Source: Hymenochaete sp. R1
Taxonomy: Eukaryota; Basidiomycota; Agaricomycetes; Hymenochaetales; Hymenochaetaceae
Reading direction: 5' to 3'
DNA length: 64,000 nucleotides
NCBI GenBank assembly: GCA_019400425.1
Contig: JAFREE010000074.1
Location: 56,970-120,969 of the forward strand
Of this stretch, positions 55,893-63,551 are shown piece after piece (the stretch's first letter is position 1; each line of letters begins with the position of its first letter). Under the pieces are notes generated by a model, which saw only the letters and a list, made by a program, of their open reading frames with translations, did not search any database and was not told the origin of the DNA. The position numbers were made by a program, and so were the translations under genes.

Positions 55893-57176
55893 TTATTTCG
55901 GGCAGAACGTCACCATGTAGTCCGTCTTGAGAGACGAAGAACAGTTACGCAAAGAGCTATGGTCATCGTAGGCGTACATGTATGCTTCTGGGCATGCCGC
56001 CTCTGCAAAGCAAATACGGTTTGAATGACGTCAAGTCAAAGAAAGAGAGACAGTCACTCACTGAATAAATCATAGTACTTGACGCCCGAACTAGGGCATT
56101 TATCGGAGGTGTTGTAATTGGCACCACTGCAGCAGTTGGGGGAGTTTTCTATAAGATACGGTAAGGTTCAATCATTCTGACGGAAAGAATATCGTTTGCT
56201 TTCTTACGTGGGTCTGGATCGAGATGCGCCGCGCACGAGCTTAGACAACCATTATCGCCATACTTAAGTTCATCAGGGCCTGGAACGAGTAAATAGTTCC
56301 ATGTCAGTAGAAAGCATTGAGTTTCAGCTACATCAGGCTTACATTTTGCCCCAATATCTTCCTTGCACGTAGAGGACATGCACCCTTTGTTTGTAAGAAT
56401 TTGCAGAGGGACATTCCATCCATCCACAAGTGACACATCATACCAATCGAGGCCGTTAACGTCATCGAGTGTCCATTCGGCAAGACTCGCGGGAGGAACG
56501 CCCTAATGAATATGAGATGTGGCACCCAAAGCAAAGTCAGGGCATGTAGGACAAGATGTAATGGTTCCATTCTCACAGTACCAATAGATTCGTTACATAA
56601 GAGCCCGCCGATGCAACCGCCAGTCGAACATGACGCTGGCTGCGTGCCATTATTAGGATCACTGAAGTCACAGTCTCTTCGTCCCTAATTCGCAAATAAG
56701 ATCAACCCTGTTATGATTGAGTGAGCAAAGAAAATGAACCCACCCATAGACGCCCTGATGTCCAACCGTCGGGCACAGGGAAGCTCACGAAACTTCCTGC
56801 TTGTTGTTCCCAGCTGGAAAAAAGATTCTGTCAACAAGAGTTGGGATTGTCTGCGTTAATACAGGTGAACTCACCCTGTTGGTGCATCAGGCTTGACTTT
56901 GGATTGTTTTAAGTCCGTGAAAAGCTATGAGCGGATTTCGAATGAGTACGACTTCGGGCTCTGAGAAGGGAAGACAAACAGCTGGCCTATTAACAAGAGA
57001 TGACCTTAGACTCGGATCTAGCAAAAGTGTGGAAAAGCTCACCAGACCGTATAATCGCAAGAGTTGACAACGTAGAACATCCTGTCACCTGTCGCGGATT
57101 CCCATAGGAGCCCGGACGACAAAACGAAGGCCAGGAGGCCCGAGATAGTGCGTTTCGAGAATGTAAAGGAAGGCAT
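55893..57176 (-). CDS. Secreted thaumatin-like protein
   Basis: Nine exons: complement(join(55893..56002,56062..56148,56208..56279,56343..56502,56577..56684,56744..56813,56875..56924,56980..56986,57043..57176)), 265 aa. A signal-type N-terminus (SKRTISGLLAFVLSSGLLWESATG) precedes the thaumatin fold: VVNSCDYTVWPALFTDLKQSK, WEQQAGSFVSFPVPDGWTSG with RLWGRRDCDF, GGCIGGLLCNESIGTGVPPASL, AEWTLDDVNGLDWYDVSLVDGWNVPLQI, then CLSSCAAHLDPDP, SPNCCSGANYNTSDKC and ACPEAYMYAYDD. The many conserved Cys and the DWYDVSLVDG signature are diagnostic. Fungal members may act on beta-glucans or in wall remodelling or antagonism; which applies is not shown. One exon is only 7 nt (56980-56986, GCCAGCT) and is needed to restore the WPA motif. 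Confidence 0.92.
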
Positions 57177-57414
57177 AGTGAGAACAACGGGTAAATTGCT
57201 TCTCAAAGGGGGCCGTCAGCAAAAGCAGGATTATAACCATGTCCATGCTGAAACATTGCAGCTTCGTACGTTTGCGCGTCAAGAATCAGCCAAGAGTCCT
57301 TCACATTCACTTTGCACTCAGCTAGTGCTCGTTATCGCATCAACAATATCATTTCAATATCGGAGCGGGTAAACGTAGGTAATAATGTGGCATCCTTTGC
57401 TGGTGTAACTTTGC

Positions 57415-57654
57415 CTAGATACCCTCGGCGGCCTCCTTGTCGGTCTTGTCATAGAATAGATGAAACGATTCTGATTCGACTTGCGGTAGAGTCTGCCTCG
57501 GTTTGACTGTAATGTCGTAGTCAACCATGATATGGCCAGAAGGGTTGTCGATGATATAGTTTGGCAGACCTAGAGCATGGATGTCGATATAAGTATCATA
57601 GGATGATGCCGATGTCGTGAGGAAGAGAAGCTGGAAGAGAACAAAAAATACCAA
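57415..57654 (-). pseudogene. Fragment of an unrecognised gene
   Basis: A 79-codon open frame with no ATG, ending at TAG 57415-57417. It follows a good splice acceptor (TTCTCTTCCAG), so it looks like the terminal exon of a gene: SYDTYIDIHALGLPNYIIDN, GHIMVDYDITVKPRQTLPQV. I find no upstream exon. The region just upstream appears to be mobile-element DNA, so the rest of the gene may have been cut off by insertion. The family is not recognised. Confidence 0.35.
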
Positions 57655-57734
57655 AAGGCACGAATTCTCACGTCGTCGCTCCTTGCCCTTTAACCACCAC
57701 CACCCAAGTTTTTCCCACGCTTCTTTCCTCGTCG

Positions 57735-57741
57735 CTACTCA
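57735..57741 (+). repeat. Target-site duplication, left copy (CTACTCA)
   Basis: The 7-bp sequence CTACTCA directly abuts the outer end of the left terminal inverted repeat and recurs at 61672-61678 outside the right one. Confidence 0.85.
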
Positions 57742-57777
57742 TGGGGGTAGGCAAAGGTGGGGTGGCATGTGTCACCG
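57742..57777 (+). repeat. Left 36-bp terminal inverted repeat
   Basis: Reading inward it begins TGGGGGTAGGC and ends GTGTCACCG. It is a perfect 36/36 reverse complement of 61636-61671, and similarity stops abruptly inside. Confidence 0.95.
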
Positions 57778-57978
57778 TTTCGTAGGGGACCAGACTCACG
57801 TCGATCTCGTTCCCACGGCTATTTTTTGTCTCGGATTCCAAGTCGCTCGCATGTACAATAGAATTTAAGCTTCCCTGTCAAGGGAAGCAATGAATATGAT
57901 TTACGCTTACGATGAAGATCTCGGAGAAGTGTCAGAAAGTGAAATATGGAAATCTGAAGTACAAATAAGTGAAGAATA

Positions 57979-60900
57979 TTATACAATTGGACCTACAAGG
58001 TGTAGGCTCGCCAAGGTTTCCGGATTGTAACTATTAAGTACGTTGAGTAATTTATTGAGTTTCTGCTGTAAGTTTCCGCTGAGGTTCCTAAGTTCCGGGT
58101 GAATGGGGTTTCGCATTTTGTGTTTCTTGAGTTGGTTGGAGAGAAATGTGGCTGATTTTGTGGAAAGGACGGTGGGGTTAGTTTCGAAGGGTATGCGTTC
58201 TAGTTCTTCTCTGTTTCGTGTCGTTCTCTCCATTCTTGCTGCCAGTTTTGTTCTTGCTTGTTCCGCCTTCTCGTTGAGTAGGTTATTGATTCGTTCAGCG
58301 GCTTTCCGGTCCAGTTTTGCTTCGTCGTCTCTCCTTCCTTCTCTCCGAAGCCATTTGCCCATTTCTTCCCCCGTGCATTTCATCTCGTACCATTCTTGCG
58401 TTCCATTGCGTATGCACTGCTGGAGAGCGTTAAAAGTAGAGAATGTAGCCGTAGGATTGTTACCGAAAAAAATGCGTGCAGATGCAAGCACGCTCTCGTT
58501 GGCATCGTTGGTGGCGGGCATCCATGCACGCTCCTTGTCCTCCCTCGACATGCCCGCAATCACCCCTTCCTCAGCGTGCTCGGCAGCAAAATGAGTCAAT
58601 GTTTCCCGCGCAGCATTGAGCAGCCGGAGCCATTGGCTTTGGTAATGCAGAAGCTTGGGTTTTAAAGCCCAAATTGCTTGCATTGTGTCAGAACGTTTCC
58701 AACCGTCAAAGCCGAGTAATGTGGCTTGCGATGGTGAAACGTTGGGTTCCCAAGCGAGGTCGGGGTAGTTGATGTGTTGTTGGAGGTGCTCTGAGCAGCG
58801 CAAGAAGAATGGTTGAAGGTCGAGTGCATTTGTGCCCTCGAGTCCATGACGACGAACTTCCAAAATGAAATGAAACGAAAAGATTTCTTGGAAGAGTGTT
58901 GAACATGCTAGTTCAGTAAGAAGACATGGATCTTGCAAGCCAACTCGTACGTTGGTTTCCATGTTGTTAAGCCCTGGCTTGAGTTTCAAAGCCTCGACGC
59001 GGTCAAGGTAGTCAAGGTATAAATGACGATTGGCAAGAAGCTCGGCGCTGCCATCTTGCCCGGAGGAATATCGGGAATTCTGTACGTCAGGAAACGTAAT
59101 ACTTTTGCCGAGTTTCTCGCGCATATATTCCCTCCAACGGTCTTGATGGCCTCTCTTCTTGTCTCTATTGTTGAAAAGAAACCCGGCCAACGAGACAAGC
59201 TTATGGCCAGTCCCACGCGATGCTCTAGCAGCGTGTCGTTGGCTGTCTGTCTGCTCGTCTCCTTCCATTTCTCCTTCTACGTGCATGAGGTTGTCCTTGT
59301 TGGGCAACAGACACGGCTGCACACCCAAACCCTCCCACCCTTCCTGGACCGCCTCATCCCCTCTCTTTGCGATGTTCAGCTCTTTATGCATCGCGCAGCC
59401 GGCAAATGGAAGGTCTTTGGCCTTCTCCAAGGTTTCTTTTTCTTCTTCGTCGAGTCCATCGTACGCCTCCTGGAATAACTGGGCTTCCAGGTTGTGCTTC
59501 TCTTCCAGCTCTCGTTTCTGCCGCTCCTCGCTGCTCAGGTTCTCCCACACATCGGGACCGCCTATGTTGTCTACCATCTCTTCTCTCATTTGTTCTATGA
59601 TATAGTTCCGCTCGTCCTCCGGCTTGGTCGCCAAAAAGTCGGCTCCGACTTGTCGCCGAAGGCAATCCAGTCGCCAGCTCGCCATAAGCTCGTTGAGCTT
59701 TTTTTGATCGGCTGCGTGGTCACCATGGGTGCCAGCGAGCTTCTGGCCAATGCCAGGTAAGGTAAGTGAATTTTGCGCATGAGAACTTGAATCAAATAAC
59801 GGGCTAGAGTTATAGGTCTCAATAGCACGTTCGATGGAATTGAGCAGCGTTTCGCGCTGCGTCTCGGAACAGTGGTCTACCGTGGGCCGAACATCAAGAA
59901 GACGAACCCTTGGAACACCTTCGACGTGAACGTTTATATGGGATGCTTGGAGTTGTTGATTCCGATAGGAGGTTCCATCGGTGCTAAGGGTAAAAGCTAT
60001 CCTAAGGTAAGCATTCTTCTTTCTTTACTATACTCTTGACACTACTGACCCGGAGTCTCACTCAGCTCCTCAGCGGTTTGCAGCTGGGCTGCCTTTTTCA
60101 TTTCCCTTTCAACTCGTTCCACCGTTCTCGTATTTGGCGCGCGCTTCTTTGGCCTCGCAGGGGTCTCTGGTAAGCCATGAATAGCATCGAAAATGAAGTC
60201 ATTAAACATTCCAATGGCGGGACCAACTCCCTTCCGAGGAAGATTCAGTGTACGAAGATGGAACATCATCTGTCGGACTTGAGTCTTGTAGTGACCTTTT
60301 TCGGTAAGTTTTGTTGCCTCTAAAAGTCTATTCTTCATTTCTGACAATTTCTGGATACCATAATTTGCCCTGAGATTCTTCCTTTGAAGAGCACGGATAA
60401 ATTTCTGTTTCGAAAGAAGTTGAGTTTCGAACTGGGCAATTTGGTACGTATATGCATTCTTCTGTAGTTCGAGCTCGTCAGTAAGCTGTTGTACGGCTTG
60501 TTCTTGTAGTTCCAGGCCAAGACAAGAAACCTCGAGATTAGAAGACGTAGATGCAAGGCAGTCACGAGTCGAAGAGAGCATGCCGAGAGCGGAGTCCAGC
60601 GAGTGAGTGATCTTCTTTTTTGTCAACTTGAAGTCCTTCCTGGCAGATTCCAGCTCTCTCTGCGCCTTAATGCGCGATTCATGAGAGCGTTTGAGTGCTC
60701 GGCGCTGGTATGACAGCTCGGAAGACTGGAATGAAGCCTTCTGCTTGAAGGAGTCGCGAGAACGAGAGATTGAGGTGAGTCGCTTGTTGGTATCGCAAAG
60801 GTCTTTGACCTTGTTATTCAATAGGCTACTGAGTTCCGAATTTTCCGCTTCCAGAGCGGAAACGTTAGCCGCTTCCATTTCAAGATCATTTCGGAGATTT

Positions 60901-61173
60901 GTAAGTTGAAGATTTTGTTCTTGAAGTTTGCGCAAAAGTTCATTTTCGCGTGTTATAGATGATCGTGTCGCCCTGTACCCAGCGCCGAGAGCATCGCGAT
61001 ACTGGTTGCGCTCGCCTGGGTAGTTCTGAGGATGTATCTCGTGGAGTGCCACCCTGGGTCGCTTTTCCGCATTCTGGGCATTTTTGGTTCGCCTCCTGCC
61101 CTTGGTTTCACCCTGTAGACCCAGTAAGTCTTTTTTCAGTTTCTATACCACTAGATTTGGATTATTTTACCAT
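57979..61173 (-). CDS. Transposase-like protein of the TIR element
   Basis: Two main exons are clear. The N-terminal one spans 60042 to about 61112 and is a long coiled coil (LLRKLQEQNLQLTNLRNDLE; ARKDFKLTKKKITHSL) ending in a basic RPKKRAPNTRTVERVERE. It probably starts at an ATG at 61171-61173 joined over a 58-bp intron (61113-61170). The second spans about 60001 to 57979 and carries IAFTLSTDGTSYRN, RLLDVRPTVDHCSETQ, HGDHAADQKKLNELM, FAGCAMHKELNIAKRG, CLLPNKDN, RHAARASRGTGHKLVSLAG and PATNDANESVLASARIF. I could not join the two main exons in frame with canonical sites, so a small exon or damage is possible. Asp of STDGT, Asp of DHAADQ and Glu of NDANES are candidates for an RNase-H-fold catalytic triad (inference). 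The family is widespread in agaricomycetes as hypothetical proteins. Confidence 0.7.
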
Positions 61174-61635
61174 TAGAGTAGCATATATGCACTTCGAAGG
61201 TGAGTGAATTTAAGAAAGATGTGTGGCACACGCAGTCACATGTTCGCGAATTTCCTTTTTAACACTCTTTTCCCTTCATTTCTTTCTCTTTACACCATTC
61301 GCTTTTCCCCTATCTAACTTGTCTTTTTAGAATGCCGAATGTCTGTTTTTTTGGTCAAAGAATCATGCTACATCGCGCATTTTTGTAAATTTCAACTCTA
61401 ACATGGGAATATGGCCATTCATAGGCCAGTTTCTCCATGTTTTCTCAATACAATGTACATTTTTGACGATGTTACGCTATTCCTTGACCCCAAAAACCCT
61501 TACTTCGCTCAATCGACTTCTTTTGAATTTGTGTTATTCATTCGTCGTGCAAATGGGACCTTAACTACAAGGATTCAGGTAAGTCGTTCTATATGCAATT
61601 ACTGGCGGGAGCGTCGATCGCTTCCTTTGAAATTT

Positions 61636-61671
61636 CGGTGACACATGCCACCCCACCTTTGCCTACCCCCA
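61636..61671 (+). repeat. Right 36-bp terminal inverted repeat
   Basis: A perfect reverse complement of 57742-57777; reading left to right it begins CGGTGACACATGCC and ends CCTACCCCCA. Confidence 0.95.
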
Positions 61672-61678
61672 CTACTCA
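61672..61678 (+). repeat. Target-site duplication, right copy (CTACTCA)
   Basis: Matches 57735-57741 at all seven positions, directly outside the right TIR. Confidence 0.85.
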
Positions 61679-61799
61679 ACGTTTTACGCTCATATCTATC
61701 CTGACTGCCGGTTTCTTTTCTTGTTTTGTCGCTTTTACCTTTTATTTTTGTCTTTGTCGTCCGTTTCTGTTTGGCTGCTAGTCCCCTTTTGTTGTAATT

Positions 61800-63551
61800 A
61801 TGGCGGGAGCCGCCGGTGGTCCCCCTCAGGACTTTACCATTGTTCCTGATTCTCTTTCTTCTCCTCTCACCTCCCTTTCCTCCCGTCCCTCTCGCTCTTC
61901 ATCTACTCCTCCTCTTCACCCTTCTCATGTTCCCCTTACTAACCCCTTGACAGCTCAGTCTATTCAAGAGGGAGGGGGGGAGCCAGTTCGACCCCCTTCA
62001 GGATCGCGTACCCTTCACATGGAGGAAGATATACACATGCCTTCCCCTTCACATTCCACACGTTCTCCCCTTTTTTCAGCTCCTCCCTCGGTCTCTCATT
62101 CTGTCTTGGCTTCGCCCCCCCCGGTTAACTTTCGCCCATCACAAATTGACAAAGTCAGCTCATCGGAAGATAGCGGACGTTGCCAGGCCCGTTTCCGCAC
62201 CCTCCTCAAGTCTTTTGCCGCTACGCAGACGCGTTTCAGCGAGATCGCATACCAACCGGAATACTCAGTTCACCAATACGATGCCCTGGACCTTCTCTCT
62301 ATCTTTGAAACATCGGCTAATCTCCTCACTGACCTCTTTCCCCTTCTTAATCAGGAAGGGCAGGACCGTATTCAAACCTCGATGAGGGGTACAGCTTCTG
62401 CACTAGGTCTCCAGATGGACACAGGTTATAACGTCAACGCACACCTCCTACAGGTTCAGAAACAACTCGCAACCATCACTCAGCATGTCGCCTCCTACGA
62501 ACAGCGTCCCCCTCCCTCCTCAGAACCTATGGTCGCACCAGTTACTCCCGCCCCTGCCACCAGACCCTCCTTCGCCCAAACGGCAGCAAAACCCGCCCCA
62601 CCTGCAACTAAACCGGCCTCAACTAACACCAAACCGACTCCCCAACAACTGAACCCGCTTCCCGGTGCCCAATTCCTCCGATTCACAGCCGTCTTCAACA
62701 AGCAAGCCCCCCCTAAGGTCCGCCTCATCCCCGAAAAGCTACTTGCCAAGTTGCACATCACCCTCGAGCGCAACCCAGCCACTGCCAAGCTCCATGTGCT
62801 TGGTGCACAATGGAATTTGAACAACAACTGCGTCTTCACCTTTCCTGCCGGCACCGATCCTGACCTTGTTCAAGCCCATGCAGACAAGTTCACCAAAGTC
62901 TTTGAGCACTTCCCTCCCCCTGCACTCCGGCAGTCTGTCAAGTGTGCAACCATCCATCTTCCAGGTGTTCCGTTCAAAGATCCCTTCTCCAATGAGCCTC
63001 ACTCCGCGGATGAGCTCCTCGCTGCTCTTCAGGCTAATCCGTGCGTCAAACACTTCACCATACGTCGTCCTCCTACATGGCTGCGTAAGATTGAAAATAT
63101 AACTGCACCCTCGTCTTCAATTGTCTTCGAAGTCGAGGACCCTACTGACATCATACAGAAGCAGATTCTCCGCACCCCATTCTATATGTTTGGCATGCGC
63201 GTCTTCCCGAAAAAGTGGGTTGACCAACCCCGCTTCCGTCAGTGTTCTCAATGCTGGCAACCCGGTCACACTGCCTCCGAATGTAAGTCAAAAACTCCTA
63301 TCTGCGTCCAATGTGGAGGTTCCCATACCTTCCAACAACATCGCCACAAATGCTTCGCTTGTGGCGAACAACCTAATTCTGACCCTATCTGCCCTCACCC
63401 CCCAATCTGCGCCATTTACAAGGGGGAGCACCGCGCTGATGCTCTTTACGAGTGCCCTGTCAAACAGAAGTACCGTCTTCCCAACCGGCCTGTCCCTGTG
63501 GCAGACCTGGACACCCGCTCACACCGATCAGACATGATTGATGATGAGTGA
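61800..63551 (+). CDS. LINE ORF1, gag-like protein with zinc knuckles
   Basis: A 583-aa intronless frame from the ATG at 61800. The N-terminal 120 residues are Pro/Ser-rich and disordered. A helical part follows (RFRTLLKSFAATQTRFSEIA; LDLLSIFETSANLLTDLFPL), then a Pro/Ala/Thr linker, and an RRM-like nucleic-acid-binding region (AKLHVLGAQWNLNNNCVFTF; KCATIHLPGVPF). The C-terminus holds a CCHC knuckle CSQCWQPGHTASEC and further Cys/His clusters (CVQCGGSHTF..HKC; CFACGEQ). In LINEs such proteins bind the element RNA. The frame has no interruption, so this copy is young or still constrained. Confidence 0.88.
   Translation: MAGAAGGPPQDFTIVPDSLSSPLTSLSSRPSRSSSTPPLHPSHVPLTNPLTAQSIQEGGGEPVRPPSGSRTLHMEEDIHMPSPSHSTRSPLFSAPPSVSHSVLASPPPVNFRPSQIDKVSSSEDSGRCQARFRTLLKSFAATQTRFSEIAYQPEYSVHQYDALDLLSIFETSANLLTDLFPLLNQEGQDRIQTSMRGTASALGLQMDTGYNVNAHLLQVQKQLATITQHVASYEQRPPPSSEPMVAPVTPAPATRPSFAQTAAKPAPPATKPASTNTKPTPQQLNPLPGAQFLRFTAVFNKQAPPKVRLIPEKLLAKLHITLERNPATAKLHVLGAQWNLNNNCVFTFPAGTDPDLVQAHADKFTKVFEHFPPPALRQSVKCATIHLPGVPFKDPFSNEPHSADELLAALQANPCVKHFTIRRPPTWLRKIENITAPSSSIVFEVEDPTDIIQKQILRTPFYMFGMRVFPKKWVDQPRFRQCSQCWQPGHTASECKSKTPICVQCGGSHTFQQHRHKCFACGEQPNSDPICPHPPICAIYKGEHRADALYECPVKQKYRLPNRPVPVADLDTRSHRSDMIDDE

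What the first reader, a model, noticed from the sequence alone, without database searches (positions are those of the whole stretch)
57742..61671. A complete TIR transposon reveals the ends of an agaricomycete 'hypothetical protein' family
Perfect 36-bp inverted repeats (57742-57777 and 61636-61671) with exact 7-bp target duplications CTACTCA enclose one minus-strand gene. Its protein belongs to a family I recognise as abundant in agaricomycete genomes (motifs STDGTSYRN, DHAADQKK, CAMHKELN, NDANES) and usually left unnamed. The terminal repeats and duplication are seen directly; that the encoded protein is the transposase is inference. Neither the 7-bp duplication nor the TGGGGG end matches common superfamilies, so this could be a new or poorly described one.
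Basis: partly seen in the sequence, partly recalled or inferred. Interest (0 to 1): 0.92.

Follow-up and report, generated by a model that had tools for sequence, protein, structure and literature searches.

The report
Unnamed mushroom transposon with hAT-like transposase
A stretch of mushroom DNA is a complete cut-and-paste jumping gene whose enzyme belongs to an unnamed fungal protein family that is predicted to fold like the enzyme of the known hAT jumping genes but differs from it in sequence and in its ends.

Summary
Window 57742-61671 is a complete TIR transposon: perfect 36-bp ends and an exact 7-bp target duplication. Six other copies of the repeat it entered lack the insert and carry one target copy. 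In this genome 5 of 6 complete family elements, each with a different target, have TGGKGGTRSGC ends and exactly 7 bp duplicated; one of the five lacks the gene (757 bp) and one is pieced from two contigs. The sixth, nested, shows a 3-bp overlap.

So: a cut-and-paste family, hAT-like in architecture without hAT's sequence signature. Whether relatives in other species have these ends was not tested; Repbase was not searchable.

The parts
57735..57741 (.). target-site duplication, left copy CTACTCA
   Evidence: exact match to 61672-61678; single copy at six empty sites, identical CTACTCA in one of them, L062
57742..57777 (+). left terminal inverted repeat, 36 bp, TGGGGGTAGGCAAAGG...
   Evidence: 100% complementary to 61636-61671; first 13 bp fit TGGKGGTRSGCRA, as do all ten ends of the five elements with 7-bp duplications
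57979..60001 (-). exon 2: catalytic region (RNase H fold with all-helical insertion) and C-terminal helices
59977..59979 (-). codon of proposed catalytic Asp 1 (D16, on strand 1)
   Evidence: D in 32 of 32 rows with a residue there; position in the fold
59719..59721 (-). codon of proposed catalytic Asp 2 (D102, after strand 4, GDHAADQ)
   Evidence: D in 33 of 34 rows
59386..59397 (-). CxxH motif (C210..H213, GCAMHKELN) after strand 5
   Evidence: C and H in 37 of 37 rows
59068..59073 (-). R318-Y319, likely counterpart of the hAT RW motif (Hermes CPTRWNST)
   Evidence: R in 33 of 35, Y or F in 35 of 35 rows; same place in hhalign, not significant
58495..58497 (-). codon of proposed catalytic Glu (E510, PATNDANE), likely counterpart of Hermes E572 (PASSAASE)
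   Evidence: E in 34 of 34 rows; Hermes motif
60002..60045 (-). proposed 44-nt GT..AG intron
   Evidence: in-frame junction giving ...ETPGQ|IAFTLSTDG...
60046..61112 (-). exon 1: predicted coiled coil, then a helix-turn-helix-like region before the catalytic domain; no zinc finger recognised
   Evidence: open frame; helices in the model of a full-length relative; no Pfam match over cut-off
61636..61671 (-). right terminal inverted repeat, 36 bp
61672..61678 (.). target-site duplication, right copy CTACTCA

Best explanation
A complete cut-and-paste DNA transposon of a so far unnamed agaricomycete family. Its gene encodes a DDE transposase of hAT-like architecture: an N-terminal coiled coil and helix-turn-helix-like region, then an RNase H catalytic domain split by a large all-helical insertion. 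Proposed mechanism: the enzyme pairs the two TGGGGGT...-ends, cuts the element out with its D16/D102/E510 active site (probably through flanking hairpins as in Hermes), and joins it to a target with a 7-bp stagger that the host fills in, leaving the 7-bp duplication. It also moves gene-less copies that carry the same kind of ends. Shown here: the ends, the duplications, empty sites, gene-less copies, conserved motifs and the predicted fold. Inferred: that this protein is the transposase, the catalytic roles of the residues, the hairpin step, movement of gene-less copies by this enzyme, and present activity.
Against: No sequence-level match to any transposase model in Pfam, nor to Hermes in the PDB sequence search with a 17-row profile. 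Profile comparison with a shallow fungal hAT alignment is not significant (probability 0.08%, E 0.64). Foldseek's TM-scores for Hermes are low (0.13-0.32 by query length). One of six complete elements, the nested C16 copy, has only a 3-bp overlap. The C231 fragment shows no ends. No movement was observed.
Confidence: 0.88

Rival explanations
1. A plain, fast-evolving member of the hAT superfamily, comparable to hAT7 of rust fungi, not a separate lineage. (This overlaps with the best explanation, which leaves the rank open.)
For: Hermes is the clear best fold match. CxxH, an R-aromatic motif and PATxxxxE stand in hAT order. hAT families with 5-, 6- and 7-bp duplications are described (PMC12730594 section 3.1.2).
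Against: No hAT model in Pfam for 38 family proteins, while ordinary hAT genes of the same genome score 41-75 bits and two fungal hAT proteins 59 and 64 bits with PF05699. hhalign not significant, but against 4 sequences only. Y or F replaces W in all 35 rows. No BED finger recognised in exon 1. Ends TGG, whereas hAT ends are usually YARNG (recalled).
Confidence: 0.35
2. The protein is a passenger or captured host gene, moved by another transposase in trans.
For: Activity was not shown. Gene-less copies suggest that the ends can be moved in trans.
Against: The protein has a predicted DDE-type RNase H fold with hAT architecture. All four gene-bearing elements with ends encode it. Other frames of these elements were listed for C309, C113, C16 and the C110 part but not searched against protein libraries, and the C205 part was not translated.
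Confidence: 0.04
3. A KDZ (Kyakuja-Dileera-Zisupton), Plavaka or Dada element.
For: Two Kyakuja families of Laccaria make 7-bp duplications; Dada makes 6-7 bp.
Against: Neither the KDZ nor the Plavaka Pfam model matches the family proteins, though both models work in this genome: KDZ 2 matches, Plavaka 16, none on the contigs of this family. Those Kyakuja families have CA..TG ends without inverted repeats. Plavaka makes 2-3 bp. Dada lacks terminal inverted repeats, has DxxH and targets small RNA genes.
Confidence: 0.03

Closest known systems
hAT superfamily (Hermes transposase, PDB 4d1q, 6dwz, 8edg)
   Same: RNase H fold with large helical insertion, CxxH motif, R-aromatic motif, final Glu in P-A-[ST]-x-x-x-x-E, multi-base target duplication, short inverted ends
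   Different: 10-12% identity in the structural alignments, no hAT Pfam match, 7 bp instead of the usual 8, TGG ends, RY/RF instead of RW, coiled coil and helix-turn-helix-like N-terminus without a recognised BED finger
hAT7 of Pucciniales (PMC12730594)
   Same: fungal, 7-bp duplications
   Different: hAT7 was classified as hAT by transposase similarity and groups in a tree with other fungal hAT and with Ac and Tam3; the present family showed no such similarity here
Kyakuja (KDZ) of Laccaria bicolor
   Same: agaricomycete, 7-bp duplications
   Different: CA..TG ends without inverted repeats; transposase of the KDZ group, whose Pfam model does not match here
Dada
   Same: DDE with C/DxxH motif, 6-7 bp duplications; present in Laccaria among fungi
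   Different: no terminal inverted repeats, DxxH, zinc fingers, RNA-gene targets

Membership tests
hAT | DDE transposase with RNase H fold interrupted by an all-helical insertion | tested here: met
hAT | hAT dimerisation domain or other hAT model recognisable by sequence (Pfam PF05699, PF14372) | tested here: not met
   no match at E up to 0.2 in 37 rows or at E up to 1 in P0024; positive controls: five ordinary hAT matches over cut-off in the same genome, P0038 and P0040
hAT | 8-bp target duplication (5-7 bp in described variants) | tested here: not met
   7 bp in 5 of 6 elements; variants hAT5, hAT6, hAT7 are described, so this alone does not exclude hAT
hAT | CxxH motif | tested here: met
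   37 of 37 rows; listed for hAT
hAT | RW motif in the insertion | tested here: inconclusive
   R in 33 of 35 rows, but Y (26) or F (9) instead of W; register with RW suggested only by a non-significant hhalign
hAT | N-terminal BED zinc finger (usual, not universal; recalled) | tested here: inconclusive
   no Pfam match over cut-off in exon 1; the 5'-most exon was not resolved
hAT | profile similarity to hAT transposases | tested here: inconclusive
   hhalign probability 0.08%, E 0.64 against only 4 sequences
KDZ (Kyakuja/Dileera/Zisupton) | KDZ transposase domain recognisable by sequence (PF18758) | tested here: not met
   no match in 37 rows or P0024; the model finds KDZ elsewhere in this genome
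KDZ, Kyakuja type | CA..TG ends without inverted repeats, 7-bp duplication | tested here: not met
   7 bp met, but TGG..CCA ends with a 36-bp inverted repeat; feature
Dada | no terminal inverted repeats, DxxH, small RNA gene targets | tested here: not met
   36-bp inverted repeats; CxxH; window target is the 5' region of a repeat; features
Plavaka | Plavaka domain (PF18759); 2-3 bp duplications, TGT..ACA or CATCA..TGATG ends | tested here: not met
   model works in this genome; features

The most novel reading that the evidence does not exclude
A separate transposon superfamily, sister to hAT and perhaps confined to Agaricomycetes: 7-bp duplications, TGGKGGT ends, RY/RF in place of the RW that hAT uses (in Hermes for the flipped base; recalled), and a coiled-coil/helix-turn-helix front end in place of the BED finger. 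It would account for a large group of unnamed proteins in mushroom genomes.
Probability: 0.5. Interest if true: 0.62.

Novelty: new variant of a known kind. Interest (0 to 1): 0.52.

Why it matters
It gives a likely function and exact element boundaries to a protein family that databases list as hypothetical in many mushroom genomes, and supplies end sequences that can be used to mask, date and test these elements. It also suggests that hAT-type transposases reach beyond what sequence profiles detect, and offers a natural comparison for how the length of the target duplication and the RW motif are set.

Tried and rejected
Chance inverted repeat: rejected. Relatives outside eukaryotes: pattern-based scans of viral contigs and genome contigs confirmed none (5 and 4 pattern matches), nor did tblastn in phage records. 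Structural neighbours among viral proteins: none at E <= 0.001. NCBIfam: no transposase among the 25 of 27 families shown. Families not listed by the fold searches (MULE, P, KDZ, Dada) are not thereby excluded; only Hermes stood clearly above the RNase H core matches. The exon-1 alignment A4 was smeared over the core and was not used; a full-length relative (P0003) was folded instead. A promoter/terminator scan of 57700-57760 gave nothing and is not meaningful for a fungus. The last protein search, meant to gather hAT proteins, gave only three, so the hAT profile stayed shallow.

Results against the reading: the nested copy in C16 (L021:3268-4024) has flanks TGGGAAG and AAGGGAG. Compared with the uninterrupted C205 copy, the overlap is AAG, 3 bp. 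A 7-bp duplication AAGGGAG followed by loss of 4 bp on one side would fit, but this is a guess. The C231 fragment (one TAG, one TAA) has no recognisable ends; the one end-like match there is at chance level. hhalign against hAT was not significant. Joining C205 and C110 into one element is inferred from matching GACCTAG flanks and complementary content. The searches of the own genome score only the best candidates, so copy numbers are lower bounds.

Literature: ten searches in the open-licence library listed no paper that I could recognise as describing this family; Repbase was not available, and the 2014 KDZ/Plavaka paper was not seen. PMC12730594: outline and abstract, sections 4, 6, 11, 12, 19 and passages. 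PMC3706591, PMC4455052, PMC9674265, PMC3411680, PMC7641404, PMC12810828: passages only. Others: search listing only.

Full report
The ends. The inverted repeat at 57742-57777 and 61636-61671 is 36 bp and perfect, flanked by CTACTCA on both sides. In 100 shuffles of 57001-62400 no exact inverted repeat longer than 20 bp arose. Of the duplication lengths tested, 5 to 9, only 7 fits.

The empty site. The two flanks, joined with one CTACTCA, were searched in the window's own genome (27.8 Mb, 336 contigs). Eight matches came back: the two flanks themselves and six other places, each running without interruption across the junction (query 175-183 to 500, junction at 250/251; 80-90% identity). Aligned, 6 of 6 carry one copy of the target, CTACTCA itself in one (L062) and CTGCTCA or CTGCCCA in the others. 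The host sequence is the 5' region of a repeated element whose first frame (61800-63551) has zinc-knuckle-like cysteines, Pfam below cut-off; I take it for a LINE (inference).

Other copies. Protein and DNA searches of the own genome gave four gene-bearing elements, two gene-less ones and a fragment; the tool scores only the best candidates. C309 is the window. C113:141273-146318 (69% protein identity) has TSD TGGTAAG. C16:29838-34717 has TSD CATATAA. C205:17759 to the contig end, with C110:1-3045, looks like one element split by the assembly, TSD GACCTAG. C24:322289-323045 is a 757-bp element without the gene, TSD GAACAAC. All five show exactly 7 bp. The sixth complete element, a gene-less copy nested in C16 and 98% identical to C24, shows a 3-bp overlap. 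C231 is a broken fragment. Ends of the five elements read TGGKGGTRSGCRA over the first 13 bases (10 of 10 ends).

The gene. Exon 2 (57979-60001) and exon 1 (60046-61112) join in frame over a proposed 44-nt intron to at least 1029 aa; the start exon is unresolved. Two searches of 5.8 billion proteins gave 25 and 12 relatives; in each only about 8,000 candidates sharing most words were scored, so the family is probably larger than shown. 27 of these 37 carry an organism name, and all 27 are genera that I know as Agaricomycetes (one checked). 26 of the 27 are called hypothetical; one carries the name of a translation factor subunit, probably a misannotation. No Pfam transposase model matches the window protein or the 36 relatives in alignment A2 at E up to 0.2 (18 families listed, none a transposase, best E 0.0045; one weak match to ribonuclease HII, E 0.017), nor P0024. 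In NCBIfam the three matches at E below 0.001 are coiled-coil models (Rad50, SMC), each in a single member (25 of 27 families shown).

Mechanism. A hAT-like cut-and-paste reaction with a 7-bp stagger is the simplest account. The ends, duplications, empty sites, gene-less copies and predicted fold are shown; catalysis by this protein, hairpin intermediates and activity today are inferred.

Place among known families. hAT by architecture, not by the sequence-based tests, with ordinary hAT genes of the same genome (41-75 bits) and two fungal hAT proteins as positive controls for PF05699. The KDZ and Plavaka models find 2 and 16 matches in this genome, none on the contigs of this family. 7-bp duplications are known for hAT7 and for Kyakuja, so the duplication length alone is not new. 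Whether this is a remote hAT subgroup or a sister superfamily is open. Ten searches of an open-licence library listed no paper that I could recognise as describing it; Repbase and most subscription papers were not covered.

Noticed in passing
window 57669-57741 and 61679-63551: The transposon sits in the 5' region of a repeated, LINE-like element (first frame 61800-63551 with zinc-knuckle-like cysteines); at least six further copies of this 5' region exist in the genome.
   Followed up: partly
L058 (C205) and L022 (C110): Two contigs appear to be adjacent, broken inside one transposon copy; their flanks share GACCTAG.
   Followed up: partly
L020:3273-8318 (C113 copy): About 1 kb of extra sequence lies between exon 1 and exon 2 compared with the window copy; not identified.
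   Followed up: no
L021:3268-4024 (C16): A gene-less copy nested in a relative's 5' end, with a 3-bp instead of a 7-bp overlap.
   Followed up: partly
P0023: A Rhizoctonia member of the family is named eukaryotic translation initiation factor 3 subunit A in the database, probably a misannotation.
   Followed up: no
G000:C260 and eleven other contigs: The genome also holds KDZ (2 matches, with stops) and Plavaka-type transposase stretches (16 matches), most of the latter without stops.
   Followed up: no
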